From assembly GCA_015233895.1 (NCBI GenBank), contig JADFXG010000002.1, forward strand, positions 124,001 to 188,000: a stretch of DNA of 64,000 nt, given 5' to 3'. A program made the position numbers and the translations under genes. How positions within the stretch are numbered: the first letter of the stretch is position 1; each line of letters starts with the position of its first letter. Shown in pieces: positions 38,603 to 60,522 of this stretch. The notes under the pieces were generated by a model. It was not told where the DNA came from. It saw nothing but the letters and a program-made list of their open reading frames with translations, and did not search any database. The stretch comes from Nitrospirota bacterium. GTDB lineage: Bacteria > Nitrospirota > Thermodesulfovibrionia > Thermodesulfovibrionales > Magnetobacteriaceae.

Positions 38603-38670
38603 CACTTGAGTGTGAAGTAAGGATTCACTATTATGTTAATCCTAAAATAAAGTATCAAGGAGGCATGGAT

Positions 38671-39186
38671 ATGGAAAACACTATTATTGAGGGTAAAAAA
38701 ATTCTTACATTAGCAGAAGTTAACGCAAGGCTTGCTGAAACTGACAAGCTAATCAAAAATCATGCTCTGTACTCTATAGGCGTTGGTCTTATACCGATGC
38801 CTGTTGTGGATTTTGTTGCATTAAACGCCCTGCAATTAAATTTGATCCGTAAGCTGTCTAACCTGTATGATGTACCGTTTCTAAAAGAAAAAGGCAAAAA
38901 AATGATAGGCACTCTTATTGGCAGCGGTATTCCTGTAGTATTGTCCAGCACTGTGGCAAGTTTGCTTAAATTCATTCCAGTCATAGGTTACACTACCGCT
39001 TCACTCAGCATATCAATAGTAGGCGGAGCCTCCACATATGCTCTCGGTAAGGTTTTTGTGCAGCACTTTGAATCAGGCGGCACTTTTCTTGATTTTGACC
39101 CGATGGCAGTTAAGGAGTACTTCGCTAAGGAATTTAAAGAAGGCCAGGGTCTTTTAAGTGAATTGAGCGGGAGTGCCACTCGTTAA
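38671..39186 (+). CDS. DUF697-family membrane protein coupled to the first synthase
   Basis: 171 residues from ATG 38671, seven bases after AAGGAGG; the ATG at 38665 is too close. DUF697-type features: ETDKLIKNHALYSIGVGLIP, MPVVDFVALNALQLNLIRKL, then SGIPVVLSSTVASLLKFIPV and IGYTTASLSISIVGGASTYA with two hydrophobic segments, and ALGKVFVQHFESGGTFLDF. Relatives are YcjF-like or fused to GTPases; the role is unknown. The 3' end overlaps the synthase start by 14 bases, so the two are probably translated together. No link of this family to polyketide making is known to me. Confidence 0.75.
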   Translation: MENTIIEGKKILTLAEVNARLAETDKLIKNHALYSIGVGLIPMPVVDFVALNALQLNLIRKLSNLYDVPFLKEKGKKMIGTLIGSGIPVVLSSTVASLLKFIPVIGYTTASLSISIVGGASTYALGKVFVQHFESGGTFLDFDPMAVKEYFAKEFKEGQGLLSELSGSATR

Positions 39187-42100
39187 AATTATCCCCCTGT
39201 CAAAGCCCGGCTCAAACACATCGGTCAATGACGGCAGGATAGATGTCTCAGCTATTGTCAAGGACTGTATTGCAAGTGTCCTTGACAAAAAGGGGTTAAG
39301 CAGTTTTTCAGAGGACACTCCCTTTGTGGAAATAGGGGTTGATTCTTTGGGACTTACTGAGATAAGTTCAAAACTGGGGCAGCAATTAGGTGTGGATATT
39401 GATGAAACCGCTTTTTTCCAGTACTCTACACCGTCTGCTATGTCAGGTTATCTGAGTTCAAAGATTTCTCCTGACAATGTAAACGTGAGTGATTTGCATA
39501 ATGACTCAGACACCTCAGCCTCTGCAGTAGATGGACAGTCAATAGCCGTCATAGGTGTGGCTTGCCGTTTTCCGGGTAATGTTAACACTGCGGAGGATTT
39601 CCTGGCACTCCTTAAAAACGGTGTTGATGCTGTTACGGATGTGCCAAAGAGCCGGTGGGACGCAGAGGCTTACTATGGCGCTGCCGCTCAAACCCCCGGA
39701 AAGATTATAAGCAAACGAGGCGGATTTATAGACGGCGTTGATATGTTTGATGCCGATTTTTTCAATATCTCTCCACGTGAGGCAGCACGCATGGACCCTC
39801 AGCAGCGGCTTTTACTTGAGACCACATGGGAGGCGCTTGAAGCTGCCGCCATAGTGCCGGAAACGCTTAAGGGAACACGCACAGGTGTGTTTGTAGGCGC
39901 ATTTACCCACAACCTCAGACATTCCGGCACAGAGGATTTCGATATGTACTATGCTACCGGTAACTCGGTCTCTATGCTGGCCGGACGTATCTCATATGTG
40001 TTTGGCTTAAGAGGACCCGCTATGGCAATTGACACAGCGTGTTCCTCCTCTTTGGTTGCCGTGCATCTTGCTGCAAGAAGCATTATAGACGGAGAGAGTG
40101 ACATGGGGTTAGCATTTGGAATCAACCTTATTCTCTCTCCCGAATTAAGCATCGCTTTTTCACAGGCGGGAATGCTTGCGCCCGATGGAAAGTGCAAAAC
40201 GTTTGACGCATCGGCAGACGGCTATGTAAGAAGCGAGGGCTGTGCCGCTATAGTGCTAAAACCTCTGTCAAAGGCAATAGCGGATGGCAATCAGGTTTTA
40301 GCAGTAATCCGGGGCAGTGCTGTAAATCAGGACGGCGCAAGCAATGGTCTGACCGCTCCGGATGTCGGCGCTCAGGAGAGAGTCATAGCTGATGCACTTA
40401 GAAGAGCCGGCGTTGCACCACATGAAATATCGTATGTGGAAACTCATGGTACGGGTACCCCTCTTGGAGATCCAATTGAAATAAAAGCAATAGAAAACGT
40501 ATATGGTAAAGACAGAGGAAACGACAACACTCTTGTGATAGGCTCGGTAAAGACAAATATTGGTCATGCTGAGGCAGCATCGGGAATAGCTGGACTCTTA
40601 AAAGTAGTACTATCATTAAAATATAGCTTCATACCGCAACACCTGCACTTTAGTGCTCCCAATCCAAACATTCATCTTGAAAAAATACCGGCTGTCATAC
40701 CGGTAAAAAAATTTCCATGGGAAAGAACCGTTACAAAAAAACGGCTTGCCGGCGTCAGCTCTTTTGGTTTCAGCGGGACAAACGCTCACGTCATAGTTGA
40801 AGAGGCGCCTCTCCCTTTACCATCATCAGATGGAGCCAGACCTTTTAATTTGCTAACTATCTCTGCGAAAACCGTTACAGCTTTAAAAGAGACTGCTGAC
40901 AGATATGTTTTATATATAAAGTCACACAATGAAATCCCTGTTGAGGATATCTGTTTCACTGCCAATACCGGACGAACCAAATTTGGAAAACGTACGGCAA
41001 TTGTGGCAGACTCTGGCAAATCGTTGGCTGAAAAGCTAATATCTTTCAGAGACGGCGTACAAACAAGTGGGGTATTGACTGTAAGCAAGCAGATTGACAA
41101 CCCCGCTGTTGCGTTTCTCTTTACAGGACAAGGTTCACAGTACAAAGAAATGGGACGGGCGCTTTATGAGTCGGAGACTGTGTTTAAGGATACTCTAAAC
41201 ACTTGCAGTGAAATATTATCTGAACGGCTAAAACCGACAATCGTTGAGCTCCTTTATAGCAAGGATGTGGACGGTGCGTTGCTTGATGAGACAATTTTTA
41301 CGCAACCCGTAATTTTTGCCGTTGAGTATGCCCTGTGCGAGTTATGGAAATCGTGGGGGGTTAAACCGTCCTGCGTTATGGGACACAGTGTGGGAGAGTA
41401 TGTGGCGGCATGTATAGCCGGAGTCTTTAGCCTTGAAGATGCCCTTAAGTTAATCAGTGTACGAGGCGCTCTGATGCAAAGAATTTCTGAGCCAGGAGCA
41501 ATGGCTGCGGTTTTATCCGATGAAAAAACAGTACTACGGTTTATTGAAAAATACGCCGACAGTGTGTCTTTGGCTGCCTTAAACGGCCCCGATAACACAG
41601 TAATATCCGGCAAAAAGGAAACAGTTGACGCGCTTATCCGGACGTTTGAACAAAACTCCATACCAGTGCGCAGTTTAAAAGTCTCACATGCCTTTCACTC
41701 ACCGCTTATGGAACCTATGCTTGAAGAGTTTCGCTCAGTTCTGCAAACCGTCAGTTTTTCTAAGCCTGAAATTAATATTATATCCAACGTAACCGGAGAT
41801 TTTATAACCGATGAGCTCACATCTCCCGGCTACTGGATAAACCACGTGATGAAACCGGTTCGCTTTGCCGATGGGATGAAAAAAATTGCCGATGCCTCAT
41901 ACAAATTGTTTTTAGAGGTTGGCGCAAAACCAATACTTACCGGTATGGGAATGAGAGCTTTAAAAGGAAATGATTTTATTTGGTGTCCCACTCTTAAAGA
42001 AGGTAAACACGATCTTCAGGTGATGTTAGAAAGTCTTGGGACAATGTCTGTTTATGGCGTTTCCGTTGACTTTGACGGCTTTTATCGTAATGTTAAAAAG

Positions 42101-45100
42101 CAAAAAGTTATGCTCCCTACGTATCCGTTTCAAAGACGCCGGTATGAGCTAAATTATAGCTCAGTTATGCAAAAGAAGGATTTTTCAGATGATTCATGGA
42201 AACAATTACTATATAACGTAGTGTGGGAAAAGTCAGGCACCCGTAAGTTTTCACTTCACAATATTGACTTACCTGATACCGGTGCAAAAAAATACGGCAC
42301 ACTTGTTTCTGAGCTTGAAAAGCTAAGTCTTGAGTTTATAATTGACGCCCTCAGACAGCTTAACTGGACATTTCATGAAGGCGGGTTTGTCACAACAGAT
42401 GAGATAGCAAATCGTCTTGGAATAACAGAGCGTCATAAGCGGCTTTTCAACCGCCTCCTTGAAATTCTTAAAGAGGAGGGTATCGTTGTTAGTAAAAATG
42501 ATACATGGGCAAACAAAACAATTCCGGAAAATATCAATCCTTTGTCACATGCTAAAGTTATTGGTGAGACATACGGTGAGGCTGAAAACGAGCTTTCAAT
42601 TCTAACCCTGTGTGGGAAAAATCTTTCTGATGTCTTAATTGGTAAAACCGACCCGCTGCATCTTCTTTTTCCCGATGCCGATACCACTAAGCTTACCGGA
42701 CTCTATCAAAACTCACCAACATTTAGTCCGCTAAATACACTACTTGTGAATTTAATTCCAAAACTCATAACCTCCTCCGGTTCAGACATAAGCGTTCTTG
42801 AAATAGGTGCTGGCACAGGCGGCACTACAGCGCGGGTCCTTCCCGCCCTACCCTCTGATTTAGCTAAATACATGTTTACAGATGTAGGCGCTCTCTTTAT
42901 AAACAAAGCACGGCAACGCTTCAGTACAAAATATCCGTTTATGCAGTATCGTGTGCTTGACATGGAAAAGCCGATAGAGCCACAGGGATTTACAGGAGAA
43001 AGATACAACATCATCATTGCTGCTAATGTTTTGCATGCTACAAAAAATTTACGCTTAACACTTGAGCGCCTAAAGACGTTGTTATCTCCTGGCGGTATCC
43101 TTATAGCCGTAGAAGGTGTGGCAAAAAGACGATGGATAGACTTGATTTTTGGCCTTATTGAGGGCTGGTGGAGGTTTGATGATTTTGATCTGCGTCCCTC
43201 ATATCCTCTCATATCCAAAGAGCAGTGGGAGACCACCCTTGTTGAATGCGGATTTAAGGATGTGGCGACTTATGCGGTAGTTGACGATGAGGCAGATGAG
43301 CTGTTCCCTCAACGGCTTGTCGTAGCGGTTAATGATGTGAAAATTGTCAGCTTTGCCTCTGACCAGACAGTTATGATTCTTGGTGATTCAACAGGCACTG
43401 GCACTGAGCTTGCCACTGCACTAAACGATAAACACATTTCTACCATTACAGTAACCAGTGGTGACACATTTAAAAAGCACAACGGTAATCTATATACGGT
43501 TAATTATGAAGACGCAGATAATTTTAAAACTCTTCTACAAAATGTGAAATCCTCCGGCGTAACGTTAAAAAATATTGTTCACACGTGGAGTCTCGGCTTA
43601 AATCTTACAGAAGAGATGAACTTATTCGACATAAACCGCACAATTTCTAAAAGCTGCCTTAGCGCCCTTAATCTGTTAAAAGCCCTTGTGTCGGATGGTA
43701 GCAACAATTATCCGGCACTTATGTTTGTAACTGCCGGTGCACAAGCTGTTGATAACAATACACCTGTAATTTTACATCCGGCACAGGCGGCGCTGTGGGG
43801 ACTTGTACGCACAATGGCCTCCGAGCACCCTGAGTTTCATCCTAAACTGACAGATCTTGAGCCGGGGAATCAATCCCGTTGGACTGATATTTTATTCAAT
43901 GAGCTTATGGATGTTAGCAGTGAAAGCGCGGTTGCCTACCGTAACTCGGAGCGGTATTTGCCAAGACTTAAGGAGTCGCTTGAGCCTCTGTTAGAGCCTG
44001 TGAGTTTTGATGCCTCTGGCACATACCTTATCACAGGGGGTACAGGAGGCATTGGGCTAACACTTGCAAGGTGGATGTCTCAACAGGGAGCAGGTGAGAT
44101 TATTCTTATCAGCCGCAGCGCTCCTAACCCTCAAATGCTTACTGAGCTTACTGCTAAAGGATACAAGATTAGACACGTCGTTGCCGACGTTTCAAAATCA
44201 GAAGAGCTTCGTGCACTGTTTGACAATATAGAACAGACAGGAGCAAGACTCAAGGGAGTTATTCATGCTGCCGGAGTCTTTGACGACAGGCTTTTAGTTG
44301 ACCACAAATGGGAACTCTTTGAAAAAGTGTTTGCTCCAAAGATAACCGGAGCGTGGAACCTCCACTGTCTTACCAAAAATATGAATTTGGACTTTTTTGT
44401 TTTATTTTCATCAGTGACATCAATTATAAACACCACAGGGGTTGCTAACTATGCGGCTGCAAATGCTTTTATGGACAGCCTGGCTCACATGAGGCGCTCA
44501 ATGGGGTTATGCGCTTTAAGTATCAACTGGGGCCCGTGGACAGATACCGGTATGGCCCATGCTGTTGGAGACCAGCGAAGCAGACAGTGGAGCGCTGACG
44601 GAATTGAAACCATCTCGCCTCATGATGCCTTAAACGTTCTTAAACATCATCTTAATTATAGCGGTGCGGGTTTATGTGCAGCAAAGATAGATTGGTCAAA
44701 ATTTTCTAAAAAGTTTTCTAAAGTTGAAGTTAAAACTGAAACAGCAGTTGCAATTACTGAAAAGTTAAAATCCATAGAGCCCACTAAACGCAGGGAGTTG
44801 CTCGCAGACTATGTAACCCGAGTGGCAGCAGCAGTTTTGGGTTTTGACGACGCTACATCTATAGACACAGTGAAAGGTTTTTTCCAGATGGGTATGGATT
44901 CTCTTACCTCTGTTGAATTAAGAAACAGATTGCAGGCGGATTTCAACATTCCCCTTTCTACGACATTTACCTTTAAGTACCCAAACATAGGGGCAGTTAC
45001 CGGGTATCTTATGGATGTGCTTTTTAAAGAAAATACTGAGAGAACCGTTAAAATTACTGAGACGGAAAAGTTGCCTGAGATTGGTTTACAATCAGAGGAC

Positions 45101-45181
45101 ATTGATGATGAGGACATAGATTCAATGATAGAACAAGAGCTTTCAGGGCTTGAAGATTTATTGAGGAAATCTGACCTATGA
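39173..45181 (+). CDS. Type I polyketide synthase 1: ACP-KS-AT-MT-KR-ACP
   Basis: 2002 residues, GTG start inside the DUF697 gene. Domains: an N-terminal carrier (about 22-98, GVDSL, Ser58 for phosphopantetheine); KS (about 122-545, Cys290, His425, His465); AT (about 645-945, GHSVGEY with Ser739; HAFH at 839-842 suggests malonyl-CoA); a helical region and C-methyltransferase (VLEIGAGTGGTTARV, Glu1210, to about 1345); KR (about 1610-1800, GGTGGIG, Tyr1760); ACP (Ser1910). No DH or ER. It should add one unit, methylate the alpha carbon and leave a beta-hydroxyl. An N-terminal ACP without a loading enzyme implies a starter delivered in trans. The C-terminus is an acidic helix (DDEDIDSMIEQELSGLEDLL) resembling a docking tail. 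Confidence 0.92.
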   Translation: MPLVKIIPLSKPGSNTSVNDGRIDVSAIVKDCIASVLDKKGLSSFSEDTPFVEIGVDSLGLTEISSKLGQQLGVDIDETAFFQYSTPSAMSGYLSSKISPDNVNVSDLHNDSDTSASAVDGQSIAVIGVACRFPGNVNTAEDFLALLKNGVDAVTDVPKSRWDAEAYYGAAAQTPGKIISKRGGFIDGVDMFDADFFNISPREAARMDPQQRLLLETTWEALEAAAIVPETLKGTRTGVFVGAFTHNLRHSGTEDFDMYYATGNSVSMLAGRISYVFGLRGPAMAIDTACSSSLVAVHLAARSIIDGESDMGLAFGINLILSPELSIAFSQAGMLAPDGKCKTFDASADGYVRSEGCAAIVLKPLSKAIADGNQVLAVIRGSAVNQDGASNGLTAPDVGAQERVIADALRRAGVAPHEISYVETHGTGTPLGDPIEIKAIENVYGKDRGNDNTLVIGSVKTNIGHAEAASGIAGLLKVVLSLKYSFIPQHLHFSAPNPNIHLEKIPAVIPVKKFPWERTVTKKRLAGVSSFGFSGTNAHVIVEEAPLPLPSSDGARPFNLLTISAKTVTALKETADRYVLYIKSHNEIPVEDICFTANTGRTKFGKRTAIVADSGKSLAEKLISFRDGVQTSGVLTVSKQIDNPAVAFLFTGQGSQYKEMGRALYESETVFKDTLNTCSEILSERLKPTIVELLYSKDVDGALLDETIFTQPVIFAVEYALCELWKSWGVKPSCVMGHSVGEYVAACIAGVFSLEDALKLISVRGALMQRISEPGAMAAVLSDEKTVLRFIEKYADSVSLAALNGPDNTVISGKKETVDALIRTFEQNSIPVRSLKVSHAFHSPLMEPMLEEFRSVLQTVSFSKPEINIISNVTGDFITDELTSPGYWINHVMKPVRFADGMKKIADASYKLFLEVGAKPILTGMGMRALKGNDFIWCPTLKEGKHDLQVMLESLGTMSVYGVSVDFDGFYRNVKKQKVMLPTYPFQRRRYELNYSSVMQKKDFSDDSWKQLLYNVVWEKSGTRKFSLHNIDLPDTGAKKYGTLVSELEKLSLEFIIDALRQLNWTFHEGGFVTTDEIANRLGITERHKRLFNRLLEILKEEGIVVSKNDTWANKTIPENINPLSHAKVIGETYGEAENELSILTLCGKNLSDVLIGKTDPLHLLFPDADTTKLTGLYQNSPTFSPLNTLLVNLIPKLITSSGSDISVLEIGAGTGGTTARVLPALPSDLAKYMFTDVGALFINKARQRFSTKYPFMQYRVLDMEKPIEPQGFTGERYNIIIAANVLHATKNLRLTLERLKTLLSPGGILIAVEGVAKRRWIDLIFGLIEGWWRFDDFDLRPSYPLISKEQWETTLVECGFKDVATYAVVDDEADELFPQRLVVAVNDVKIVSFASDQTVMILGDSTGTGTELATALNDKHISTITVTSGDTFKKHNGNLYTVNYEDADNFKTLLQNVKSSGVTLKNIVHTWSLGLNLTEEMNLFDINRTISKSCLSALNLLKALVSDGSNNYPALMFVTAGAQAVDNNTPVILHPAQAALWGLVRTMASEHPEFHPKLTDLEPGNQSRWTDILFNELMDVSSESAVAYRNSERYLPRLKESLEPLLEPVSFDASGTYLITGGTGGIGLTLARWMSQQGAGEIILISRSAPNPQMLTELTAKGYKIRHVVADVSKSEELRALFDNIEQTGARLKGVIHAAGVFDDRLLVDHKWELFEKVFAPKITGAWNLHCLTKNMNLDFFVLFSSVTSIINTTGVANYAAANAFMDSLAHMRRSMGLCALSINWGPWTDTGMAHAVGDQRSRQWSADGIETISPHDALNVLKHHLNYSGAGLCAAKIDWSKFSKKFSKVEVKTETAVAITEKLKSIEPTKRRELLADYVTRVAAAVLGFDDATSIDTVKGFFQMGMDSLTSVELRNRLQADFNIPLSTTFTFKYPNIGAVTGYLMDVLFKENTERTVKITETEKLPEIGLQSEDIDDEDIDSMIEQELSGLEDLLRKSDL

Positions 45182-45187
45182 TAGAAA

Positions 45188-45325
45188 ACTGGATTCCTGC
45201 TTTCGCAGGAATGACAGAAAAGGAAAAGGAATGACAGAAAAGGAATTAAAAGAAAAGGAAAAGGTAGGAGCGAATAATTATTAGCCCCTACCTCTGTCAT
45301 TCCCGCCTACGAGCGGGAATCCAGT
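45188..45325. repeat. Palindromic repeat element between synthase genes 1 and 2
   Basis: ACTGGATTCCTGCTTTCGCA... (45188-45217) is answered by ...GCGGGAATCCAGT (45294-45325) in inverted order; each arm is itself a small hairpin of the widespread ACTGGATTCCCGC/GCGGGAATGACAG type. Inside are a 17-base tandem repeat (GGAATGACAGAAAAGGA) and a second inverted pair AGGTAGGAGC/GCCCCTACCT. This looks like a MITE or REP pair inserted in the intergenic gap, and could act as a terminator or mRNA stabiliser. Confidence 0.75.
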
Positions 45326-45387
45326 CCTTTTTTTTCAATCTTAAATTTCTTATGAGGACAAATTGATAGTAGCCACTATAAGGATTT

Positions 45388-48300
45388 ATGGAAGATAAAG
45401 CAAAAGAAACATCGTCAAAGAGAGTGCTTGATGCGCTTAAGGAGGCACGCTTACGGATAGGGAGTCTTGAAAGCGCTAAGAGAGAACCTATAGCCATAGT
45501 GGGTATGGGTTGCCGTTTCCCTGGAGGATGTAACAGTATTGACTCCTACTGGCAGTTTCTCAGAGACGGAGGAGACGGAATTGTTGAAATCCCATCCTAC
45601 AAGTGGCCTCTTGATGAGCATTACAGCCCTGATCGTAACGCACCGGGGAAAATATACATTACTCGCGGAGGATTTCTAACCGGCATAGATCAGTTTGACG
45701 CAGCGTTTTTTAGAATATCACCAAGAGAAGCAGCAAGCCTTGATCCTCAGCAAAGGTTGCTTCTTGAAGTGGCATGGGAGGCGCTTGAAAACGCAGCGAT
45801 TGCTCCCGATAGCCTATATGGAAGTAATACCGGAGTTTTTATAGGAATTGGACAGAATGATTATTCAAGGCGTGGGCTTACATCGGGCGACCTCAGCCAG
45901 ATAACCACTTATGACGGCACCGGCAACCTTTTTTGTTTTGCCTCAGGGCGGCTATCATACGTTTTAGGGCTTCACGGCCCTGCTGTTTCATTAGACACGG
46001 CGTGTTCATCCTCCCTTGTGGCTATACATTTGGCCTGCACGGCTCTTAGACAAAAAGAATGCTCAACGGCTTTAGCCGGAGGAGTACATTTAGTGTTATC
46101 GCCTGAGATGACGATTTTTCTTTCCAGAGCTAATGTGCTCTCCCCCGATGGCTGCTGTAAGACCTTTGATGTAACAGCGGATGGGTTTTCACGCGGTGAG
46201 GGCTGCGGTATTATAGCGCTTAAGCGTCTGTCCGATGCCATATCTGATGGAGATAATGTGCTTGCTCTAATACGAGGGTCAGCCGTTAATCAGGACGGCC
46301 CTGGAAGCGGTCTTACCGTACCTAATGAGGCAGCACAAGAACGCGTAATACGAGCTGCCCTTCTTAACGCCGGTGTGGAGGCTTCTGAGGTCAGTTTCAT
46401 AGAGGCACACGGCACAGGCACAGCCCTTGGCGACCCCATAGAGGTGGGCGCTCTGGGAGCAGTGTTTAAACCAGTAAAAAGTAAGGGAAATCCCCTTGTT
46501 ATAGGCTCAGTAAAGACAAACTTTGGGCATTTAGAGGCAGCCGCAGGTGTAGCTGGGCTAATAAAAGTGGTGCTTTCAATGCAGCACAGTAAAATTCCGC
46601 CGCATCTGCATTTTAAAACTCCAAACCCACACATTGACTGGGCATCTTTACCAATAGAGGTGGCAGCAGGCGGACAAACTTGGAGCGGAAAAAAAATTGC
46701 CGGAGTCAGCTCCTTTGGCTTTAGCGGAACAAACGCTCACGTTGTGTTAGAGGAGGCTCCAACGCCTCAGAGAGTAGCGCCGGAACTAAAACGCCAGCTT
46801 CATATCCTGACCCTTTCAGCTAAAACCGACGATGCCCTAACTGATCTGACCATCCGATACAGAGAAATGTTGGCCACATCACCCAATATTGAAGTCTCTG
46901 ATCTCTGTTATACGACAAACGTTGGACGCAGCCATTTTGCTAAACGCAGATTCGTAATAGGTGCAACGACTGAGGAGCTTCTAAAGGGTCTTTCTGAAAC
47001 TAATGAATTCCAATTACCAATAGAGCCGAAAAATGCGGAGGAAAACGGCTTGCGGCAGGAACTGGAAACTCTTGGCAAACTTTATGTAAGCGGTAAAGAC
47101 ATTGACTGGAAAAACTTTAATGCTCCCTACGGCTACAGAAAGCTTACTACGCTGCCCACATACCCGTTTGAGCGTAAGAGCTACTGGTTAGATAAGCCAG
47201 AGATTTCTAAAGTAACAGATGTGACGTGGAAATCTCCCGGAGAGCGTATCAGGCTTCCCATGAGTAAAGAGGTGCGGTTTGAATCTGTTTTTACCCCCAA
47301 GTCTCCTTCCTATATTTCAGACCATCGTGTGTTTGGCAGACTCGTTGTAGCCGGAGCATCTCACCTTTCAATGGTGTTACAGGGTTTACAGGAGGCATTT
47401 GGCCTTAATTCATGTACTATTTATGACGTCTTTTTTAGCGCACCTCTTGTGATAGATGAAACACAATTACGACTTGTACAGTTAATAATAGAGCCGCATG
47501 AAAACGATGTTTTTCTTTTTAAACTTATAAGCCAAAGTGAAAAAGACGGCGACGACTCATGGATCACCCATGTAACCGGGAAGGCTGCCCCATTGCGCAA
47601 CCCTGGTGAGCATTTGCCTGAGTTCAATATAAATGTTGAAGAGATTCGTACCAGATGCCAAAATGTAACAGATGGTGATAAGTTCTATGACAAGCTGTAC
47701 AAGGCTGGTTTTGATTTGGGACAAAGTTTCAGGTGGAACAGTGAAATATGGTTTAATAAGGATGAGGTCTTATGCAGCATAGCCTCAAACATTAATTTGC
47801 GATATGAGCAATATCAACTGTATCCAGGCCTTATGGACAGCGCCTTTCAGCTGCTAAGTAATTTCTGGAATGTGGATTCAACAGAGCCAGGCGCCGTAAG
47901 TTATTTGTATGTTCCATTTAGAATATCCGATATATCGTTTTATGGCAAGCCAAACTCTGATGACAAATTACTGTGTTATGCGGCAGTTACCGGGAAAAAC
48001 GATGACGAAAGCAGATTCCCTCCTACAAAACTCCTCATTCTGACAACATCAGGCACACCAATTGCTTTGGTAAACGGGTTTGAATTCCGCAAAGCTGACA
48101 CGGCTGCACTTTTTAAGGCTAAGACAGAAAGCATTAATATACGCAACGAATGGCTTTATGAAATTAAATGGATAGAGGCTGAAGTAAAAACAGTTACTCA
48201 AAAACGGCTGTATGGAAAGCACTTTTTAATTTTTGCCGAAGACTCAGTTTTAGTTACCACGCTGTCTGATATGTTTAGAAAGTCGGGAGCATTAGTCACA

Positions 48301-49974
48301 CATGTATCTTATATTGAAAAACCAGAGGACTATTCTGATCTAATTAAAACTATTGATAACATTACCGATGTTCTGTTTTTTGCAGGCATTGAGGAAACCC
48401 ATATCTCAGACATTGAAGAGAGTCAGAACAAAGGTGCAATATCGTTAGCGTATCTTGTGTCGGAAGTGTTAAAAGCAAATCTGCCAAAAGTCCCGCACCT
48501 TTATGTGATTACAAGAGGTGCTCAGTTTATAAACGGAAAATTTCTTGAGACTTCTCTTGGCTACTCAACCATTTGGGGTATGCCACATGTGATTGACCTT
48601 GAGGCTCCGGCACTCAGAGCAAAATTTATTGATCTTGATCCGGTAATAAAGAATAACGAAATATCTGCCCTGTTTTATCACATTACCGATGACACGGCAG
48701 AGTCACAGGTGTCTTTTAGGGATGGAGTGCGGTATGCGGCAAGGATTTTAAATACTAAAGCAGTCAACGGCACTCTGCAGCTTGACGGTAATTCTACTTA
48801 TATTATAACCGGCGGGCTGGGCGCTTTAGGGCTTGAGCTGTCAGCATGGCTTGCCAAAAAGGGAGCGCGTCATATAGCGCTTACAGGCAGACATGAAGCA
48901 GGTTCAGAGGCAAAAAATAAAATCTCACAACTTGAGACTCAGGGAGTTTCTGTGAATGTGATTTCAGCCGACGTATCTGTCACAGAAGACGTTGAACGGC
49001 TCTTTAGCACAATATCAGAGACAATGCCGCAGGTAAAGGGGATAATCCATGCCGCAGGAGTGTTGGATGACAGTGTGATATTAAACCTTAATGCCGAGAA
49101 ATTCAGAAATGTCATGAAACCAAAAGTCTATGGCACATGGAATCTACACAGGAAAACATCTGATATGAATCTCGACTTTTTCGTATGTTTTTCATCGTTA
49201 GCCGCTATGACAGGCTCTAAGGGACAGGGTAATTACGCCGCAGCCAATGCCTTTATGGATGCGCTTATGCGGTATAGGAGAACTTTAGGGCTTCCCGGCC
49301 TTAGCGTCAACTGGGGAGCATGGGGCGACACGGGTATGGCTTCAAATCTTAGTGATACTGAAAAGATGCGTTTACGCCAAACAGGTGTTGGCACTATTTC
49401 AACTGAAGATGGTCTAAAACTGCTTGAAGACTTAATCACAGAGGGTGCAACAAATGCCGGAGTGTTCCCAGTGGACTGGAGCAAGTACGGAGCAGAAGTA
49501 TATAGTGGGAAAATGCCACCATTTTTCGATTTTGTAAAGGTTAGCGATATAACAAAGTCCTCCGCAGATATTGTCGATTTTTCAGCTGATAATTTCAATA
49601 AGGTGTCGCAGGATGAGCAAATACAGCGGATTACGGATTATATAAGAGAACGGGTATCGGCGGTACTTGGTATGAAGCAGCCTCAGGATATAGGCTTGCG
49701 GGTACGTCTGTTTGATGCAGGCATTGATTCTCTTATGGCTATAGAGCTAAAGAATCGTCTTGAGTCAGGTTTTAAACTTTCGCTTCCTGCTACCCTCGTG
49801 TTTGATTACCCCACAGTTGAGGCCCTTACTGAGTATATCTGCCGAGAGCTTGGAATTTTAGAACAGACAGAGGCAGCGGATAGCGAATCGTCAAAAGACA
49901 TCGAACTGGATTCATTACTTGATGATATAGATACAATGAGCGATGAGGAACTAATGAAGAGATTCAAAAAGTAA
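45388..49974 (+). CDS. Type I polyketide synthase 2: KS-(no AT)-DH-KR-ACP
   Basis: 1528 residues. A short N-terminal docking-like helix (LDALKEARLRIGSLE) leads to KS (about 33-455, Cys206, EAHGTGTALGD, FGHLEAAAG). The KS-to-AT linker is present (HILTLSAKTDDALTDL, CYTTNVGRSHFAKRRF), but the AT is gone. After QLPIEPKNAEENG the chain passes to LGKLYVSGKDIDWKNF, the post-AT linker that in synthase 3 comes after a 300-residue AT. Then DH (His646 in DHRVFGRLVVAGA, Asp817 in YPGLMDSAFQ), KR (GGLGALG, Tyr1283) and ACP (Ser1448, DAGIDSL). It would yield a double bond if an AT acts in trans. Start ATG lies 63 bases after the repeat. C-terminal acidic tail present. Confidence 0.92.
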   Translation: MEDKAKETSSKRVLDALKEARLRIGSLESAKREPIAIVGMGCRFPGGCNSIDSYWQFLRDGGDGIVEIPSYKWPLDEHYSPDRNAPGKIYITRGGFLTGIDQFDAAFFRISPREAASLDPQQRLLLEVAWEALENAAIAPDSLYGSNTGVFIGIGQNDYSRRGLTSGDLSQITTYDGTGNLFCFASGRLSYVLGLHGPAVSLDTACSSSLVAIHLACTALRQKECSTALAGGVHLVLSPEMTIFLSRANVLSPDGCCKTFDVTADGFSRGEGCGIIALKRLSDAISDGDNVLALIRGSAVNQDGPGSGLTVPNEAAQERVIRAALLNAGVEASEVSFIEAHGTGTALGDPIEVGALGAVFKPVKSKGNPLVIGSVKTNFGHLEAAAGVAGLIKVVLSMQHSKIPPHLHFKTPNPHIDWASLPIEVAAGGQTWSGKKIAGVSSFGFSGTNAHVVLEEAPTPQRVAPELKRQLHILTLSAKTDDALTDLTIRYREMLATSPNIEVSDLCYTTNVGRSHFAKRRFVIGATTEELLKGLSETNEFQLPIEPKNAEENGLRQELETLGKLYVSGKDIDWKNFNAPYGYRKLTTLPTYPFERKSYWLDKPEISKVTDVTWKSPGERIRLPMSKEVRFESVFTPKSPSYISDHRVFGRLVVAGASHLSMVLQGLQEAFGLNSCTIYDVFFSAPLVIDETQLRLVQLIIEPHENDVFLFKLISQSEKDGDDSWITHVTGKAAPLRNPGEHLPEFNINVEEIRTRCQNVTDGDKFYDKLYKAGFDLGQSFRWNSEIWFNKDEVLCSIASNINLRYEQYQLYPGLMDSAFQLLSNFWNVDSTEPGAVSYLYVPFRISDISFYGKPNSDDKLLCYAAVTGKNDDESRFPPTKLLILTTSGTPIALVNGFEFRKADTAALFKAKTESINIRNEWLYEIKWIEAEVKTVTQKRLYGKHFLIFAEDSVLVTTLSDMFRKSGALVTHVSYIEKPEDYSDLIKTIDNITDVLFFAGIEETHISDIEESQNKGAISLAYLVSEVLKANLPKVPHLYVITRGAQFINGKFLETSLGYSTIWGMPHVIDLEAPALRAKFIDLDPVIKNNEISALFYHITDDTAESQVSFRDGVRYAARILNTKAVNGTLQLDGNSTYIITGGLGALGLELSAWLAKKGARHIALTGRHEAGSEAKNKISQLETQGVSVNVISADVSVTEDVERLFSTISETMPQVKGIIHAAGVLDDSVILNLNAEKFRNVMKPKVYGTWNLHRKTSDMNLDFFVCFSSLAAMTGSKGQGNYAAANAFMDALMRYRRTLGLPGLSVNWGAWGDTGMASNLSDTEKMRLRQTGVGTISTEDGLKLLEDLITEGATNAGVFPVDWSKYGAEVYSGKMPPFFDFVKVSDITKSSADIVDFSADNFNKVSQDEQIQRITDYIRERVSAVLGMKQPQDIGLRVRLFDAGIDSLMAIELKNRLESGFKLSLPATLVFDYPTVEALTEYICRELGILEQTEAADSESSKDIELDSLLDDIDTMSDEELMKRFKK

Positions 49975-50050: not shown

Positions 50051-51445
50051 ATGGAACAGGTAAAAATCAAGGTAAATTTGGTAGGTTCTAATGAGGAGCT
50101 TCTTGTAACTCTTAAAGAGAATATTACCGATGATGGCTATAGCGTATGGCGGGGTGCCGAAAACGGCTCATCTATAGTAATTGACGAAAACAGAAACGGA
50201 GCCGTAATAAACGTTGAAAAAAGTGATAATATAGCTACCGATACTGAAGGTATTATTACCGAATTCCTAAAACTCAGGAATCAATCTAACGAAACAGCCT
50301 CATCAGGAATTGAGCCTACAGATGAGGGCTCAGTCAAAAGTGAACCGCATCCATACGACCCTGAAAAAATAAGAGTAGATACTAAACCATTTTCTTTAAA
50401 ACAGACATATGAGCTTATTGAAAGTGGAGATATAGATTTATCCCCTGATTTTCAGCGCCACTTTGTTTGGAAAGAAATCAAGAAACAGTCAAGATTGATA
50501 GAATCTATAATGCTTAGAATCCCAATCCCTGTGTTTTATCTTTCTCAGGACAATGAGGGCAGATTTCAGGTTGTTGACGGACTGCAACGTCTTACAGTTA
50601 TCAGACGATTTATAAACAATGAATTTGCGTTAAGAGATTTGGAATATCTTACAGATTGTAATAATTGTTTTTATAATTATAATAACGGTGGAGAACCAAA
50701 AAAGATATTGCATCCCAAATATACAAGAAGAATTGAACAAACCCAGCTGATTTTCAATATTATTGATCCACAAACCCCTTTCAGAGTCAAGTATGACCTT
50801 TTCAGAAGAATAAATGAGGGCGGCACGCCGTTAAATAGTCAGGAAATCAGAAATTGCATGGCTAAACCTTATATTAGGAAATTTATTGATGCACTTGCCA
50901 ACTCTGAAGATTTTATAATGGCAACGGATAACAGCATAAAACCTTTAAGAATGCAGGATCAGGAAATGGTATTACGTTTTATCGGTTTTTATTATATAAA
51001 AATATTAGGGAAATCAAGTTATAACGGAGATATGGAAGATTTATTGGATAAAACTCTCGATAGTTTAAATAAGGAAAATGAACATGTATTAAATGAAATC
51101 AAAGAATCGTTTACAAGAGCCATGAAAAACTCTTCTCATTTGTTTGGCAAGACTGCATTCAGAAAATGTTTGCCAGAGCACATAGCTGACGGCGCAAGAA
51201 AGCAGTTTTTAAATAAGCTATTGTTTTTGACATGGTCTGTTTCTTTGGCGCAATTTGATACTCAAAACATTGAAAAAAACAATGATGCTAACTGCCTTGT
51301 TATTCCTCATGCCAACGAACTTCAAAGGAATAATGATTATACTGATTATTATTATGCTTTAACTCATGCGACAAATGACAAAAAAAATGTGGATTCTGCA
51401 TTTGAAAGAGTGCAATCTATAATTAAACAATACATAAGGTACTAA
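50051..51445 (+). CDS. DUF262-family (ParB/Srx-like) protein of a putative defence cassette
   Basis: 464 residues. The first 110 or so are poorly conserved and partly acidic. Then the DUF262 core: FSLKQTYELIESGDIDLSPD, FQRHFVWKEIKKQSRLIESI, RIPIPVFYLSQDNEGRFQ and VVDGLQRLTVIRRF, whose D-G-x-Q-R (Asp176 to Arg180) is the nucleotide-handling motif of GmrSD/BrxU-type proteins. FRRINEGGTPLNSQEIRNC is the second hallmark. The C-terminal half is helical, with no HNH (DUF1524) nuclease seen. It is the first of three tightly packed genes (two-base gap, then a four-base overlap) placed between synthases 2 and 3. AT-rich codon use differs from the synthases. Confidence 0.85.
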   Translation: MEQVKIKVNLVGSNEELLVTLKENITDDGYSVWRGAENGSSIVIDENRNGAVINVEKSDNIATDTEGIITEFLKLRNQSNETASSGIEPTDEGSVKSEPHPYDPEKIRVDTKPFSLKQTYELIESGDIDLSPDFQRHFVWKEIKKQSRLIESIMLRIPIPVFYLSQDNEGRFQVVDGLQRLTVIRRFINNEFALRDLEYLTDCNNCFYNYNNGGEPKKILHPKYTRRIEQTQLIFNIIDPQTPFRVKYDLFRRINEGGTPLNSQEIRNCMAKPYIRKFIDALANSEDFIMATDNSIKPLRMQDQEMVLRFIGFYYIKILGKSSYNGDMEDLLDKTLDSLNKENEHVLNEIKESFTRAMKNSSHLFGKTAFRKCLPEHIADGARKQFLNKLLFLTWSVSLAQFDTQNIEKNNDANCLVIPHANELQRNNDYTDYYYALTHATNDKKNVDSAFERVQSIIKQYIRY

Positions 51446-51446
51446 A

Positions 51447-52634
51447 ATGCTGAAAAAACTAACAATAAATAACTTTAAGTGTTTTTTAGATGAAACAATA
51501 TCATTCAAAGATTTAACAGTATTAGCAGGCGCTAACGGGGTTGGTAAGTCAACTGTTATTCAGGCTTTATTGATCATAAAGCATACGCGTGAAAAATATC
51601 TTCGTTATAATTTTAAAGATTGTCCATCTTCAAAATCAGACTTTGCACCAATAGAGCTAAACCATACATATATGATGAATCTTGGTAATGCGGAAATGGT
51701 TATAAACTCAAAATCAGAAATAAAAGAAATAAAGCTTTCATATTGTGCTGATTCTGATTTTAAAGCTGATTTTGTATATGGCCTCGTACCAGATAAATTA
51801 ATAATATCATTTAAGAACTTACAACAAAAATTTAAAGGTAATACAAATCCAAATGATGATCCTTTTGTTCAAACTGATTTTAACTATCTAAATGCAGAGA
51901 GAATAGGTCCAAGAAACATTCAATCCATGGGGTATCAGGAGTTTATAAATACCGGCTATCAAGGCGAGTTTACAGGACAGGCTATATCTACAGCTGAAAA
52001 TAAAAATCTTACATTGAAAAAAGATGATAAAAGACTTTTTAGACCAGAAGATAACGAAGAGATACAGCTTGCATTAAGAAAACAGATTGAACAGTGGATG
52101 GACTTTATAATACCGGGAATACGTTTGAACGTGGAATCGTTTCCGGCAATAAATACTGTAAGAGTTTCACTTAAAAAAGAGGGAATGGATACTGGATTTT
52201 TACATCCAAACAATATAGGATTTGGGATAACGTTTGTACTTCCTATAGTGGTTACAGGACTTATTGCTTCAAGAGGCTCTATGATAATAGTGGAAAACCC
52301 TGAAGCTCATTTGCATCCTTACGGGCAATCCAAAATAGGGCAGTTTTTGGCTGCTGTTGCATCTCAGGGAATACAGGTGGTAGTAGAAACGCACAGCGAA
52401 CACGTTATAAACGGCATAAGAGTAGCTTCTTTAAAAAACTTTATTACACCGGACAAAATATGTATCAACTTTTTTAGTCACAATAAAGAAAAACAAGCAC
52501 CGGATATAACTGAAATTACGGTTGATGATGAGGGCGATCTTTCCAAATGGCCTCGTGATTTTTTTGATCAGGAGGAAAGAGATTTGGCAGAAATCCATAG
52601 ACTTAGAAAAAAGAGAAAATCTAACAATATATGA
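51447..52634 (+). CDS. AAA (OLD/SMC-like, DUF3696-type) ATPase of the cassette
   Basis: 395 residues. The start MLKKLTINNFKCFLDETISF and Walker A GANGVGKST (28-36) are typical of RecF/OLD-like AAA ATPases. The C-terminal part has IIVENPEAHLHPYGQSKIGQ (Walker B region, Glu283) and QGIQVVVETHSEHVINGIR, matching the AAA_15/DUF3696 group, with an EITVDDEGDLSKWPRDFF end typical of it. No TOPRIM nuclease domain is visible, so any effector activity must be elsewhere. It begins two bases after the DUF262 gene and overlaps the next gene by four bases, so the three are surely one operon. Confidence 0.88.
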   Translation: MLKKLTINNFKCFLDETISFKDLTVLAGANGVGKSTVIQALLIIKHTREKYLRYNFKDCPSSKSDFAPIELNHTYMMNLGNAEMVINSKSEIKEIKLSYCADSDFKADFVYGLVPDKLIISFKNLQQKFKGNTNPNDDPFVQTDFNYLNAERIGPRNIQSMGYQEFINTGYQGEFTGQAISTAENKNLTLKKDDKRLFRPEDNEEIQLALRKQIEQWMDFIIPGIRLNVESFPAINTVRVSLKKEGMDTGFLHPNNIGFGITFVLPIVVTGLIASRGSMIIVENPEAHLHPYGQSKIGQFLAAVASQGIQVVVETHSEHVINGIRVASLKNFITPDKICINFFSHNKEKQAPDITEITVDDEGDLSKWPRDFFDQEERDLAEIHRLRKKRKSNNI

Positions 52635-53533
52635 ATACTGTTTTTTATTTATTCAACAAGTCTTTCAAAAATATCAACAATCTAACAATTGAAGAGCTTG
52701 GCGAAAAAATTTATGATTTTTTTGAATTGTGCGATAACATAAAAGATTCCGGTGATGAAATTTTCAAAAGTAATTCTATATATGAGGAACAGTTTTTTGA
52801 TAATTATGCGCTTTATGAGATAATGTATAAAGAGAGAGGAATAGCGCTTAAACCTGAACACAAGAGAGCTTTATTAAAACTTGATCACATTACTAAAACC
52901 TCCTTTAATGATGTTCAGATGACCGAACAATTAAATGAAACTACAGAAAGTAATTTATATGGGCTTCTCTGCTTCAATAGAATTGAAACTCCAGATAAAA
53001 TTGACTCCAGACTACTTATCTCTGTACAACAAGATTGGTATTCTTTTCATAGATATTATTTATACATTTTTTATATTTCTGAAGAGAGCTTTTTTGAAAG
53101 ATGTAGAAAATATTTCCCTGAGCTGTTTTTTCATGAAAGAAATAGATATGCGCTAAAAACATTAAGTGGCGGCCTTGAGCTCTTCTCAGAAACAATAGTA
53201 TCTCATTTAGAGAAGCTGAACGATGAATTCAGGAAATATTATAATTATCAGTCCATAGCTCAATCCATTGATAAAATAATACAAGCATTTTGTTCGGCAA
53301 ATAATATCAAAGGCTCATTACAAGGGGAAAATCACGATCAACTGTATTTTGAGTTTTACAATACCCAAACAAAAACCCTCGAAAAGATATGCTGTGACCC
53401 TCATTTAAAATTAAGAACGCCTGATAGACCTGGCAATACCCAAAGATATGAAAACCGTATATATTTCCATCAAGGGAAAAAAGGCGTACAAGGTGGAAAA
53501 ATACTGATAGGCCACATTGGTGAGCATTTATAG
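52631..53533 (+). CDS. Unknown third protein of the cassette (possible effector)
   Basis: 300 residues, starting by ATGA overlap with the ATPase gene. No family recognised. It is rich in aromatic and charged residues, with a predicted alpha-helical body (FEERCRKYFPELFFHE-like region about 155-175, DEFRKYYNYQSIAQSIDKII about 196-215). The conspicuous C-terminal segment has EKICCDPHLKL, RYENRIYFHQGK and GKILIGHIGEHL. His, Cys and Asp residues here could be catalytic or bind metal, but that is a guess. There is no signal peptide or membrane helix. Its position makes it the likely executioner or sensor of the cassette. Synthase 3 starts 26 bases later. Confidence 0.7.
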   Translation: MNTVFYLFNKSFKNINNLTIEELGEKIYDFFELCDNIKDSGDEIFKSNSIYEEQFFDNYALYEIMYKERGIALKPEHKRALLKLDHITKTSFNDVQMTEQLNETTESNLYGLLCFNRIETPDKIDSRLLISVQQDWYSFHRYYLYIFYISEESFFERCRKYFPELFFHERNRYALKTLSGGLELFSETIVSHLEKLNDEFRKYYNYQSIAQSIDKIIQAFCSANNIKGSLQGENHDQLYFEFYNTQTKTLEKICCDPHLKLRTPDRPGNTQRYENRIYFHQGKKGVQGGKILIGHIGEHL

Positions 53534-53559: not shown

Positions 53560-56500
53560 ATGACTGATCTATCAAAACGAATTCAGGGGATGTCGCCTGT
53601 TAAGCTTGCTTTTGCGGCAGAGCAGATGGCATCCAAGTATGAGATACTTAATGCCGAACCTATTGCCATAATAGGGATTGGGTGCAGGTTTCCGGGCAAG
53701 GCCAATAATCCGAAGTCGTACTGGACACTTCTTAAATCGGCAACAGAGGTAAGAACAGAGGTTCCGGCAAGCAGGTGGGATATAAATGAATACTACGCCT
53801 CTGACCCCGATGCTCCAGGTAAGATGTACTGCCGATACGGTGGTTTTCTTGATAACGTTTATGATACCGATGCGCACTTTTTTGGTATTTCTCCAAGAGA
53901 GGCTGTAACGATAGACCCGCAGCACAGGCTGCTTTTAGAGGTCGCATGGGAGGCGCTGGAACACGCCGGAATCCCTGCCGAAAAACTTTATGGAACTCCT
54001 GTCGGGGCTTTTATAGGGGTTAGCACTTTTGAATATGCGGCAGTAAAGATAGGGTTAAACGACCCAGCCAAAATAGACGCCTACTACAGCACCGGAGGAT
54101 ATCTTAGCATGTGTGCCGGGAGGTTGTCCTATACGTTTGGTTTTACCGGGCCCTGTATGTCAATAGACACAGCCTGTTCCTCCTCTTTGGTAGCGGTGCA
54201 TCTGGCCAGCCAAAGTCTCAGGCGCAGGGAGTGCTCGCTTGCTCTTGCCGGAGGAGTTAATCTGTTACTTTCCCCCGAATTAAGCATTAGTTTTTCAAAG
54301 GCGCGGATGCTCTCCCCTGAAGGCCGCTGTAAGACTTTTGATGCCGGAGCGGATGGTTATGTGCGCGGCGAAGGGTGTGGCGTTGTAGTTCTAAAACGTC
54401 TTTCCGATGCGCTCTCTGATGGAGATAACGTCCTTGCGCTAATCAGAGGCAGCGCTGTTAATCAGGACGGACCTAGCGGCGGACTCACTGTGCCTAGCGG
54501 CCCTGCTCAGGAACGCATAATACGCAAAGCACTTTCTGATAGTGGTGTGGAACCCGCAGAGGTCAGTTATATAGAAGCCCACGGCACAGGCACATCACTT
54601 GGCGACCCCATAGAGGTTGGAGCTTTAGGAGCAGTTTTTAAAAATGTAAAAACAAAATCCGATCCGCTTTTAATTGGTTCAGTTAAAACTAACTTCGGAC
54701 ATCTGGAGGCTGCCTCAGGTGTTGCAGGGCTTATAAAAGTAGTGCTTTCTATGCAGCACGGGAAAATCCCACCGCATCTGCACTTTAAAACCCCAAGCCC
54801 GCACATTGATTGGGCAGCTTTACCCATCGAGGTGGTTTCAGGCGGGCACACATGGAGCGGTAGAAAAATTGCCGGAGTAAGTTCCTTTGGGGCAAGCGGA
54901 ACAAACGCTCATGTGGTATTGGAGGAGGCGCCTCTGCATAAAAAAACGGAGTCCAATCTCAATCGGCCTGTTCACATACTAACCATATCGGCTAAAACCG
55001 ATGAATCCCTCACTGAGCTAAGCAACCGATATAAAGAAATATTGCAATCCTCAGACGTTACGATTAGCGACATTTGTTATACGGCAAACGTTGGACGAAA
55101 TCATTTTGCCAAGCGCAGATTTGCCATAGGTGAAACTGCTGATGAGTTTATTAACGGGCTATCTGAGGCACAAGAAATACAGTTACCAGATGAACGTCCT
55201 AAGATTGCATTTCTTTTTACAGGACAAGGCGGACTTTCACAAAACATGGGACGCAGCCTTTACGAAAGCAGCCCTGTCTTCAGAGATACCCTCACAGAAT
55301 GTGACAGGATATTGCAAAAACACATGGATGTGCCGCTTTTGGAACTGATGTACGGAGGAGTTTCAACTGAGGTTCTCAATGAGACAAGGTACGCTCAGCC
55401 TGTTCTATTTTCTCTTGAATATAGTTTATACAAGTTATGGCAATCGTGGGGAGTTGAGCCGGGAGCATGTTTAGGCCATAGCATAGGTGAATATACTGCT
55501 GCTTGTGTCTCAGGAGTGTTTTCGCTTGAGGATGCTTTAATGCTTGTAGCTCTGCGTGGACAATTAATGTGGGAGGCCCCCGGAAATGGCACAATGGCAG
55601 CGGTGTTTGCAAGTGAAACTTTGGTGCTGGAGGAGTTATTTTCTGATGATGTCTCCATAGCAGCGGTTAATGGCCATGACAGCATTGTGATTTCAGGACT
55701 TAAGGATAGTGTAATGGAAACGTGCAAGCGTCTTTCAGAGCGTGGCATAAAAAGCAAAGAACTTATAGTCTCACACGGGTTTCACTCACGCTTGATGGAG
55801 CCGGTATTGGAGAGTTTTGCTCAAACTGCTGACAAAGTTGTCTATCACAGAGGCAAAATACCTGTTGTATCAAACGTAAGCGGAGATTTTTATCGCGGCG
55901 AGGAATTAAGTACCCCCTACTGGGTTAAACACCTTAGAGGCACAGTCAGGTTCTTAGCAGGCATTGAAACACTATATAGGGACGGTTACCGGGTGTTTTT
56001 GGAGTTGGGCCCTGGAACAGTGCTTCTTGGCATGGGCAGAAGGTGTGTTGATGATAAAGCAACTGCATGGCTTCCATCCTTAAGAGCGAGTCAGAATGAC
56101 TGGCGGCAAATACTAAAATCCCTCGGAGGACTATACGTCTGCGGAATGGATATAAACTGGAGAGATTTTAACGCTCCCTACGGCTATAAGAAAGTTACAA
56201 CGCTGCCAACATATCCATTTGCGCGCAAACGATATGAAATAGACAGATCTACAGCCTCTAAGGTAAAAGAGCTAAAGTGGAAATCTCCCGGTATAAAAAT
56301 GATGCTTCCCATGAGCACGGAGATTCGGTTTGAGTCAGTCTTTAGTGCCGTAGTTCCGTCTTATATCCCCGACCATCGTATATTCGGCAAACTAATAGTT
56401 GCCGGAGCGTCTCACATCTCTATGGTGATACAGGCTGCAAAAGAGGTCTTTGGCAGCGGACACTGTAAGCTTGAGGATTTTGTTTTTCAGCAGCCAGTTG

Positions 56501-60234: not shown

Positions 60235-60522
60235 TTGAAGCTTGATGAATTAAAGATGAAATATCCCGTAGGATTTGAAAAAGCAGTTCATATCACTAAG
60301 GATGAATTGGAACAGCAGATTCGTTTAATGGCGGCACTTAAGATGTTTGAACTCGGAAAGATATCATCCGGCAGGGCTGCGGAACTTGCTGGTATGTCAC
60401 GTGTTGAGTTTTTTGAGGCTTGTGGCAGATATCGTGTAAGTGTTTTTAATTATTCCAATGAGGAGATTGGAGATGAGCTGAAAAATGAACTTGATACTAT
60501 AGAAAAAATTTTCAAACTATGA
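60235..60522 (+). CDS. UPF0175-family antitoxin
   Basis: 95 residues, TTG start six bases after GGGAGG. UPF0175 features: LEQQIRLMAALKMFELGKIS, SGRAAELAGMSRVEFFEACG (helix-turn-helix-like) and a GRYRVSVFNYSNEEIGDE tail that would wrap the toxin. The gene partners a DUF3368 PIN-like protein with a four-base overlap, the standard pair. The promoter probably lies in the AT-rich 160 bases after synthase 3, and the HTH suggests self-repression. Confidence 0.88.
   Translation: MKLDELKMKYPVGFEKAVHITKDELEQQIRLMAALKMFELGKISSGRAAELAGMSRVEFFEACGRYRVSVFNYSNEEIGDELKNELDTIEKIFKL

What the first reader, a model, noticed from the sequence alone, without database searches (positions are those of the whole stretch)
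45388..49974. Polyketide synthase module with its acyltransferase cleanly removed
Synthase 2 keeps both linkers that flank the AT in its close relative, synthase 3, but the roughly 300-residue AT is absent: the chain goes from QLPIEPKNAEENG straight to the LGKLYVSG linker. KS, DH, KR and ACP keep their catalytic residues (Cys206, His646, Asp817, Tyr1283, Ser1448). The neighbours are ordinary cis-AT modules, so this is not a trans-AT system by design. Either an AT from synthase 1 or 3 serves the module, or a separate AT elsewhere does, or the module only passes the chain.
Basis: partly seen in the sequence, partly recalled or inferred. Interest (0 to 1): 0.7.

Follow-up and report, generated by a model that had tools for sequence, protein, structure and literature searches.

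The report
Conserved AT-less polyketide synthase module
One enzyme in a bacterial polyketide assembly line lacks the domain that normally loads its building block; the same gap recurs at the same step in related assembly lines from other phyla, so it is an old, working feature in which that step probably borrows its building block from another enzyme, and not a broken gene or assembly error.

Summary
Synthase 2 (45388-49974) is KS-DH-KR-ACP with both AT-flanking linkers and no AT or AT remnant. It is no assembly artefact: a closed genome of the same genus has the same AT-less module, fused to synthase 1. KS, DH, KR and ACP evolve under purifying selection like their AT-bearing neighbours (omega 0.08-0.14).

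The KS belongs to a "module 2" clade from Nitrospirota, Desulfobacterota and anammox planctomycetes. Eight of nine members lack an AT; the ninth is cut by a contig end and may have one. Related lines also carry dead mid-line ATs: Ser to Asp or Gly, or about 95-115 residues deleted including the catalytic His. First- and last-module ATs stay intact. The only stand-alone AT in the closed genome is FabD.

Best explanation (about 0.72): synthase 2 elongates with malonyl delivered in trans by a neighbouring cis-AT (slightly preferred) or FabD. The supplier is not settled. A non-elongating split-module role is less likely. AT-less or AT-dead modules in cis-AT lines are known (haliamide, irumamycin); the cross-phylum recurrence is what is new. 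New variant of a known kind.

The parts
45388..49974 (+). Synthase 2: AT-less PKS module, 1528 aa, KS-linker-(no AT)-linker-DH-psiKR-KR-ACP
   Evidence: same architecture in a closed same-genus genome
45484..46752 (+). KS domain (residues 33-455), Cys-His-His intact (Cys206, His341, His381); member of the module-2 KS clade
46753..47022 (+). KS-to-AT linker (CurL-like_PKS_C), retained
   Evidence: Pfam PF22621 2.9e-21, residues 472-534
47023..47055 (+). Junction where the AT of other modules sits; no AT sequence in any frame
47056..47202 (+). Post-AT linker with LPTYPFERKSYW motif, retained
   Evidence: alignment to synthase 3
47230..48105 (+). DH domain, His646 and Asp817 present, omega 0.136
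48778..49377 (+). KR domain, TGGLGALG, LDD motif, Tyr1283, omega 0.133
49636..49857 (+). ACP, Ser1448 in GIDSL, omega 0.139
39173..45181 (+). Synthase 1: ACP-KS-AT-cMT-KR-ACP; fused to synthase 2 in the sister genome; AT (about 41114-42061) has GHSVGE and SHAFH
53560..60072 (+). Synthase 3: KS-AT-DH-ER-KR-ACP; AT about 55201-56145 with GHSIGE and SHGFH
50051..53533 (+). Three non-PKS genes matching the NsnABC defence system, lying between synthases 2 and 3; absent at this place in the sister genome
   Evidence: PADLOC NsnA 9.3e-118, NsnB 3e-105, NsnC 9.7e-74

Best explanation
Synthase 2 is a genuine elongating module of a cis-AT PKS-NRPS line that has no AT of its own. Its ACP is charged with malonyl in trans by an AT already in the cell; KS2 then condenses, and KR and DH process the new beta-carbon. 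The supplier is one of the intact ATs of the same line, most plausibly that of synthase 1 (in the sister genome it sits on the same polypeptide), or the fatty-acid enzyme FabD. Shown here: AT absence, conservation across phyla, intact catalytic residues, purifying selection, absence of a dedicated trans-AT. Inferred: that the module elongates, and the identity of the supplier (neighbouring cis-AT about 0.5, FabD about 0.35, other 0.15). The slight preference for a neighbour rests on the ATs of the first and last modules being intact in every line where they could be read, while mid-line ATs are lost repeatedly; if FabD sufficed, first and last ATs should erode too.
For: Same AT-less module in a closed genome. 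dN/dS of KS 0.084, DH 0.136, KR 0.133, ACP 0.139, within the range of AT-bearing neighbours, with 95% bootstrap intervals far below 1. KS clade of module 2 across Nitrospirota, Desulfobacterota and anammox planctomycetes; 8 of 9 members AT-less. Cys-His-His kept in the module-2 KSs and in the other AT-less KSs of these lines. Lines with several consecutive modules lacking a working AT still keep KS, DH, KR and ACP: G061 modules 2-5, of which 4 and 5 have GHS to GHD plus deletion of AT residues about 120-213. In G833 an AT-less KS-DH-KR-ACP module follows a complete KS-AT-DH-KR-ACP module, so it would have nothing to do unless it elongates. Only FabD stands alone among the ATs of G000, closed G001, G061, G068, G069 and G833 (for G000 TIGR00128 350.5 bits). 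Precedents: AT-less haliamide modules 2 and 5 take up malonate units in feeding (PMC6274090); irumamycin AT12 is GHG and loading by AT11 was proposed (PMC11672594); FabD serves the AT-less barnesin PKS (PMC13096860).
Against: No biochemistry and no product. Module 1 lacks a DH and module 2 supplies one in every line but one, which would also fit a split-module role; in two anammox lines module 2 has no KR. One relative (G009) may have an AT in its module 2, inferred from broken contigs. The two candidate suppliers cannot be told apart from sequence, and first/last AT retention comes from a small sample of related lines.
Confidence: 0.72

Rival explanations
1. Split module: synthase 2 does not elongate. 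It takes the beta-hydroxy chain from synthase 1 (KR but no DH) onto its own ACP and its DH dehydrates it, like a type A dehydrating bimodule of trans-AT systems.
For: Module 1 lacks a DH and module 2 has one in nearly all lines; two anammox lines have module 2 = KS-DH-ACP without KR, the type A layout.
Against: Type A second KS has lost a catalytic His (Cys-Asn-His in hangtaimycin, PMC8456789), while all module-2 KSs keep both. KR2 is intact and under purifying selection but would have no substrate. In G833 the AT-less module 4 follows a module that already has DH and KR. G018 module 1 has its own DH.
Confidence: 0.17
2. FabD, not a neighbouring cis-AT, is the supplier (sub-case of the best explanation).
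For: FabD is the only stand-alone AT in the closed genome and its G000 counterpart passes TIGR00128; FabD supplies malonyl to barnesin PKS (PMC13096860).
Against: Does not explain why first- and last-module ATs are intact in all lines seen while mid-line ATs erode.
Confidence: 0.35
3. Decaying remnant: the AT was deleted and the module is on its way out.
For: ATs in this family are clearly eroding, and the line is split over three genome places in this lineage.
Against: dN/dS as low as neighbours, intact catalytic residues, same state in two species and three phyla.
Confidence: 0.04
4. Assembly artefact: an AT collapsed out of the assembly because synthase ATs are similar.
For: ATs of synthase 3 and the C1 module are 90% identical, and contigs of G003, G009 and G018 do break inside ATs.
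Against: A closed one-contig genome of another species in the genus has the same layout and junction; frame is intact.
Confidence: 0.01

Closest known systems
Haliamide PKS-NRPS (Haliangium ochraceum), PMC6274090
   Same: PKS modules 2 and 5 lack ATs amid AT-bearing modules; feeding shows those modules take up malonate units; a stand-alone AT outside the cluster was proposed
   Different: Myxobacterial line, not compared by sequence here; in our genomes the only stand-alone AT is FabD
Irumamycin module 12 (Streptomyces), PMC11672594
   Same: Mid-line AT inactive (GHS to GHG) and loading of T12 by the neighbouring AT11 proposed
   Different: AT still present though dead; single case in one line; here the AT is gone in module 2 and dead ones occur in other modules of relatives
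Barnesin BrnF (Sulfurospirillum barnesii), PMC13096860
   Same: AT-less PKS module in an anaerobe, served by FabD
   Different: Only PKS module of that line, so no neighbouring AT to share
Mixed cis/trans-AT PKSs in the orphan PKS catalogue, PMC10394414
   Same: 122 PKSs and 351 PKS-NRPS hybrids with both kinds of module were counted
   Different: Not analysed by module position, orthology or AT erosion in the text read
Canonical trans-AT PKS (bacillaene PksJ/PksL; solved AT-less chain 7zma)
   Same: KS-linker-post-AT linker-DH without AT; 7zma aligns continuously through that region
   Different: KS2 scores much higher with cis-AT CurL (673.5 bits) than with trans-AT PksJ/PksL KSs (about 405-415 bits); no dedicated trans-AT gene

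Membership tests
trans-AT polyketide synthase | Module without integrated AT, flanking linkers retained | tested here: met
trans-AT polyketide synthase | Dedicated stand-alone AT encoded in or near the cluster | tested here: not met
   Only FabD stands alone in G000 and the closed G001
trans-AT polyketide synthase | All modules AT-less | tested here: not met
   Synthases 1, 3, the C1 module and the PKS-NRPS carry full ATs
trans-AT polyketide synthase | KS nearer to trans-AT than cis-AT KSs | tested here: not met
   CurL 673.5 bits against about 405-415 for PksJ/PksL
cis-AT modular PKS | AT integrated in each extension module | tested here: not met
   Synthase 2 lacks it
Mixed cis-AT line with AT-less module (haliamide/irumamycin kind) | AT-bearing and AT-less or AT-dead extension modules in one line, with intact KS and ACP | tested here: met
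Mixed cis-AT line with AT-less module (haliamide/irumamycin kind) | AT-less module demonstrably incorporates an extender unit | not testable with these tools
   No product or assay
Type A dehydrating bimodule | Second KS non-elongating, catalytic His lost | tested here: not met
   His341 and His381 present; same in relatives
Type A dehydrating bimodule | First module KR without DH, second module DH | tested here: met
   Synthase 1 has KR and no DH, synthase 2 has DH; but synthase 2 also has a KR

The most novel reading that the evidence does not exclude
A PKS-NRPS assembly-line family shared by Nitrospirota, Desulfobacterota and anammox planctomycetes, with a related line in Methylococcales, runs on shared in-line ATs: the AT of the first module charges several downstream ACPs, and the freed mid-line ATs erode stepwise (catalytic Ser or His lost, small subdomain cut out, then AT gone). 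This would be a living intermediate between cis-AT and trans-AT synthases.
Probability: 0.35. Interest if true: 0.68.

Novelty: new variant of a known kind. Interest (0 to 1): 0.47.

Why it matters
How trans-AT synthases relate to cis-AT ones, and whether a cis-AT can serve a neighbour's carrier protein, are open practical questions for PKS engineering. Here AT absence is conserved at one position in three phyla, and related modules show intact, dead, truncated and absent ATs side by side, so AT sharing can be tested with native partners. The closed genome narrows the supplier to five enzymes: four cis-ATs and FabD.

Tried and rejected
Assembly collapse: rejected by the closed sister genome. 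Recent excision from a synthase-3-like module: rejected for the KS by the tree, not for the DH-KR part. Decay: opposed by dN/dS. Dedicated trans-AT in the genome: none. Two AlphaFold jobs (synthase 2 KS-linkers; dead-AT module of L054) were run without an alignment and gave pLDDT 32 and 36, so no structural claim is made and no fold search was run. The literature search for this pathway in magnetotactic, anammox or sulfate-reducing bacteria returned nothing on it. A wider search of 395 genomes of the G064 phylum at a strict cut-off found only the known G064; of 75 genomes of the G062 class, G833 added a new instance.

Full report
Observation. The ORF at 45388-49974 (+) encodes 1528 aa without interruption. 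Pfam gives KS, KS-AT linker, DH, KR and ACP and no AT, while synthases 1 and 3 have full ATs. Aligned with synthase 3, the AT block is missing and both linkers remain; no AT remnant is found in any frame at the junction.

Artefact check. Genome G001, one contig of 3.27 Mb from the same genus, carries the same locus: synthases 1 and 2 fused in one 3450-aa protein with the same AT-less junction, followed directly by synthase 3. The window differs by a split between synthases 1 and 2 and by three inserted genes matching the NsnABC defence system between synthases 2 and 3. An AT lost by misassembly would have to be missing in both.

Function. dN/dS between the two genomes (Nei-Gojobori, bootstrap intervals) is 0.084 for KS2, 0.136 for DH2, 0.133 for KR2 and 0.139 for ACP2, like the corresponding domains of synthases 1 and 3 (0.05-0.19); all intervals exclude 1. 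The module is therefore maintained, including the KR and DH that would be idle if it merely passed a chain.

Pathway context. G000 holds two further PKS loci: a KS-AT-DH-ER-KR-ACP protein on C1 and a KS-AT-ACP-aminotransferase-C-A-PCP-C protein on C15. In a Desulfobacteraceae genome (G061) and an anammox genome (G063) the corresponding genes are in one cluster in the order module 1 to PKS-NRPS, and in G018 the synthase-3 and C1-type modules are adjacent. An AsnB-like gene directly follows the terminal PKS-NRPS in G000, G018, G061, G063 and G064, and the NRPS gene in the Methylococcales line G066 (55-81% identity to that of G000). The three G000 loci are thus probably one dispersed pathway (inference).

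AT distribution. Domain maps built with HMMs made here: module 2 is AT-less in G000, G001, G061, G064, L060, G062, G063 and G833. Other modules are AT-less (module 3 of G061; module 4 of G062, G063 and G833) or carry dead ATs: G061 modules 4 and 5 (GHS to GHD, residues about 120-213 missing), module 5 of G062 and G063 (GHS to GHG; in G063 full length but with SYAFN at the His motif), and the C1-type module of G018 (residues 133-249 missing). In G833 the module-5 AT is intact. First-module and terminal ATs were intact wherever read in full. Methylococcales lines (G066-G068) show KS-DH-ER-KR-ACP modules without AT after an AT-bearing first module.

KS phylogeny. The KS of synthase 2 falls in a clade of module-2 KSs with support 100/100 (8 rows) and SH-aLRT 99 after adding G833 (9 rows). 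Eight of nine members are AT-less. The ninth, G009, ends at a contig edge; fragments C72 and C94 begin inside ATs, and the DH-KR of C72 groups with module-2 DH-KRs (95/92), so G009 may keep an AT there. Hence either a single old loss with regain in G009 or several losses; I cannot tell. The DH-KR of synthase 2 groups weakly with synthase 3 (81/96), so the gene is a mosaic. By sequence KS2 is of cis-AT type: 673.5 bits to CurL against about 405-415 to trans-AT PksJ/PksL, while 7zma, a solved chain without an AT at this place, aligns continuously through KS, linkers and DH.

Who supplies malonyl. By Pfam AT search G000 and closed G001 each have five ATs: synthases 1 and 3, C1, C15 and FabD. The stand-alone one of G000 passes the FabD equivalog cut-off (350.5 against 260.9). 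G061, G068, G069 and G833 also have only a FabD-sized stand-alone AT; other genomes with related lines, such as the two Anammoxibacter and the Methylobacter genomes, have more than one stand-alone AT hit, not examined further. The candidates here are therefore a neighbouring cis-AT or FabD. I lean slightly to a neighbour because first and last ATs were never seen to erode while mid-line ones do, but this is inference from few related lines.

Rivals. A split, dehydrating role fits the missing DH in module 1 and the KR-less module 2 of two anammox lines, but the second KS of a type A dehydrating bimodule has lost a catalytic His (PMC8456789), which is not so here; KR2 is conserved; and G833 has an AT-less KS-DH-KR-ACP module after a complete AT-DH-KR module. 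A type B-like arrangement, in which both KSs elongate and DH2 also serves module 1, remains possible and agrees with the best explanation.

Known work. AT-less or AT-dead modules in otherwise cis-AT lines have been reported: haliamide (PMC6274090), irumamycin (PMC11672594), and 473 mixed lines in the orphan catalogue (PMC10394414). FabD as supplier is reported for barnesin (PMC13096860). From memory, FK228 is a further FabD case; no open text was found to confirm it. What I did not find described is the conservation of one AT-less module across phyla and the graded AT erosion in its sister lines.

Taxonomy. The window genome shares a family with G018, whose contig C218 is identical to PEAC01000138.1 of Nitrospirae bacterium MYbin6 (Nitrospirota).

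Noticed in passing
window 50051-53533: NsnA, NsnB and NsnC defence-system genes sit between synthases 2 and 3 on the same strand; the sister genome G001 has synthase 3 directly after synthase 2 there.
   Followed up: partly
window 55201-56145 and G000:C1:7047-7901: ATs of synthase 3 and the C1 module are 90% identical within G000 (85% in G001) but orthologous ATs only 82-84% between the genomes, while other domains of the two modules are far less alike (KS 72, DH 29): a sign of AT gene conversion.
   Followed up: partly
L054 (G061:C162) modules 4 and 5; G018:C218 4515-7010: ATs missing about 95-115 residues that include the catalytic His and, by position, the small subdomain, in frame and in different phyla; G061 also has Ser to Asp in GHSxG.
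   Followed up: partly
window 39173-49974 versus L082:1776-12128: Synthases 1 and 2 are separate proteins here, fused in G001.
   Followed up: yes
window 39173-45181 and L046: Synthase 1 lacks a DH between AT and methyltransferase; its G018 counterpart has one.
   Followed up: no
window 38665-39186: A DUF697 gene overlaps the start of synthase 1; an ORF of the same length (173 aa) sits in the same place in G001 (L082:1268-1789).
   Followed up: no
L039:18006-19928: AsnB-like gene directly after the PKS-NRPS, with homologues next to the related lines in other phyla.
   Followed up: partly
window 60519-61007: Small DUF3368 protein after synthase 3; not examined.
   Followed up: no
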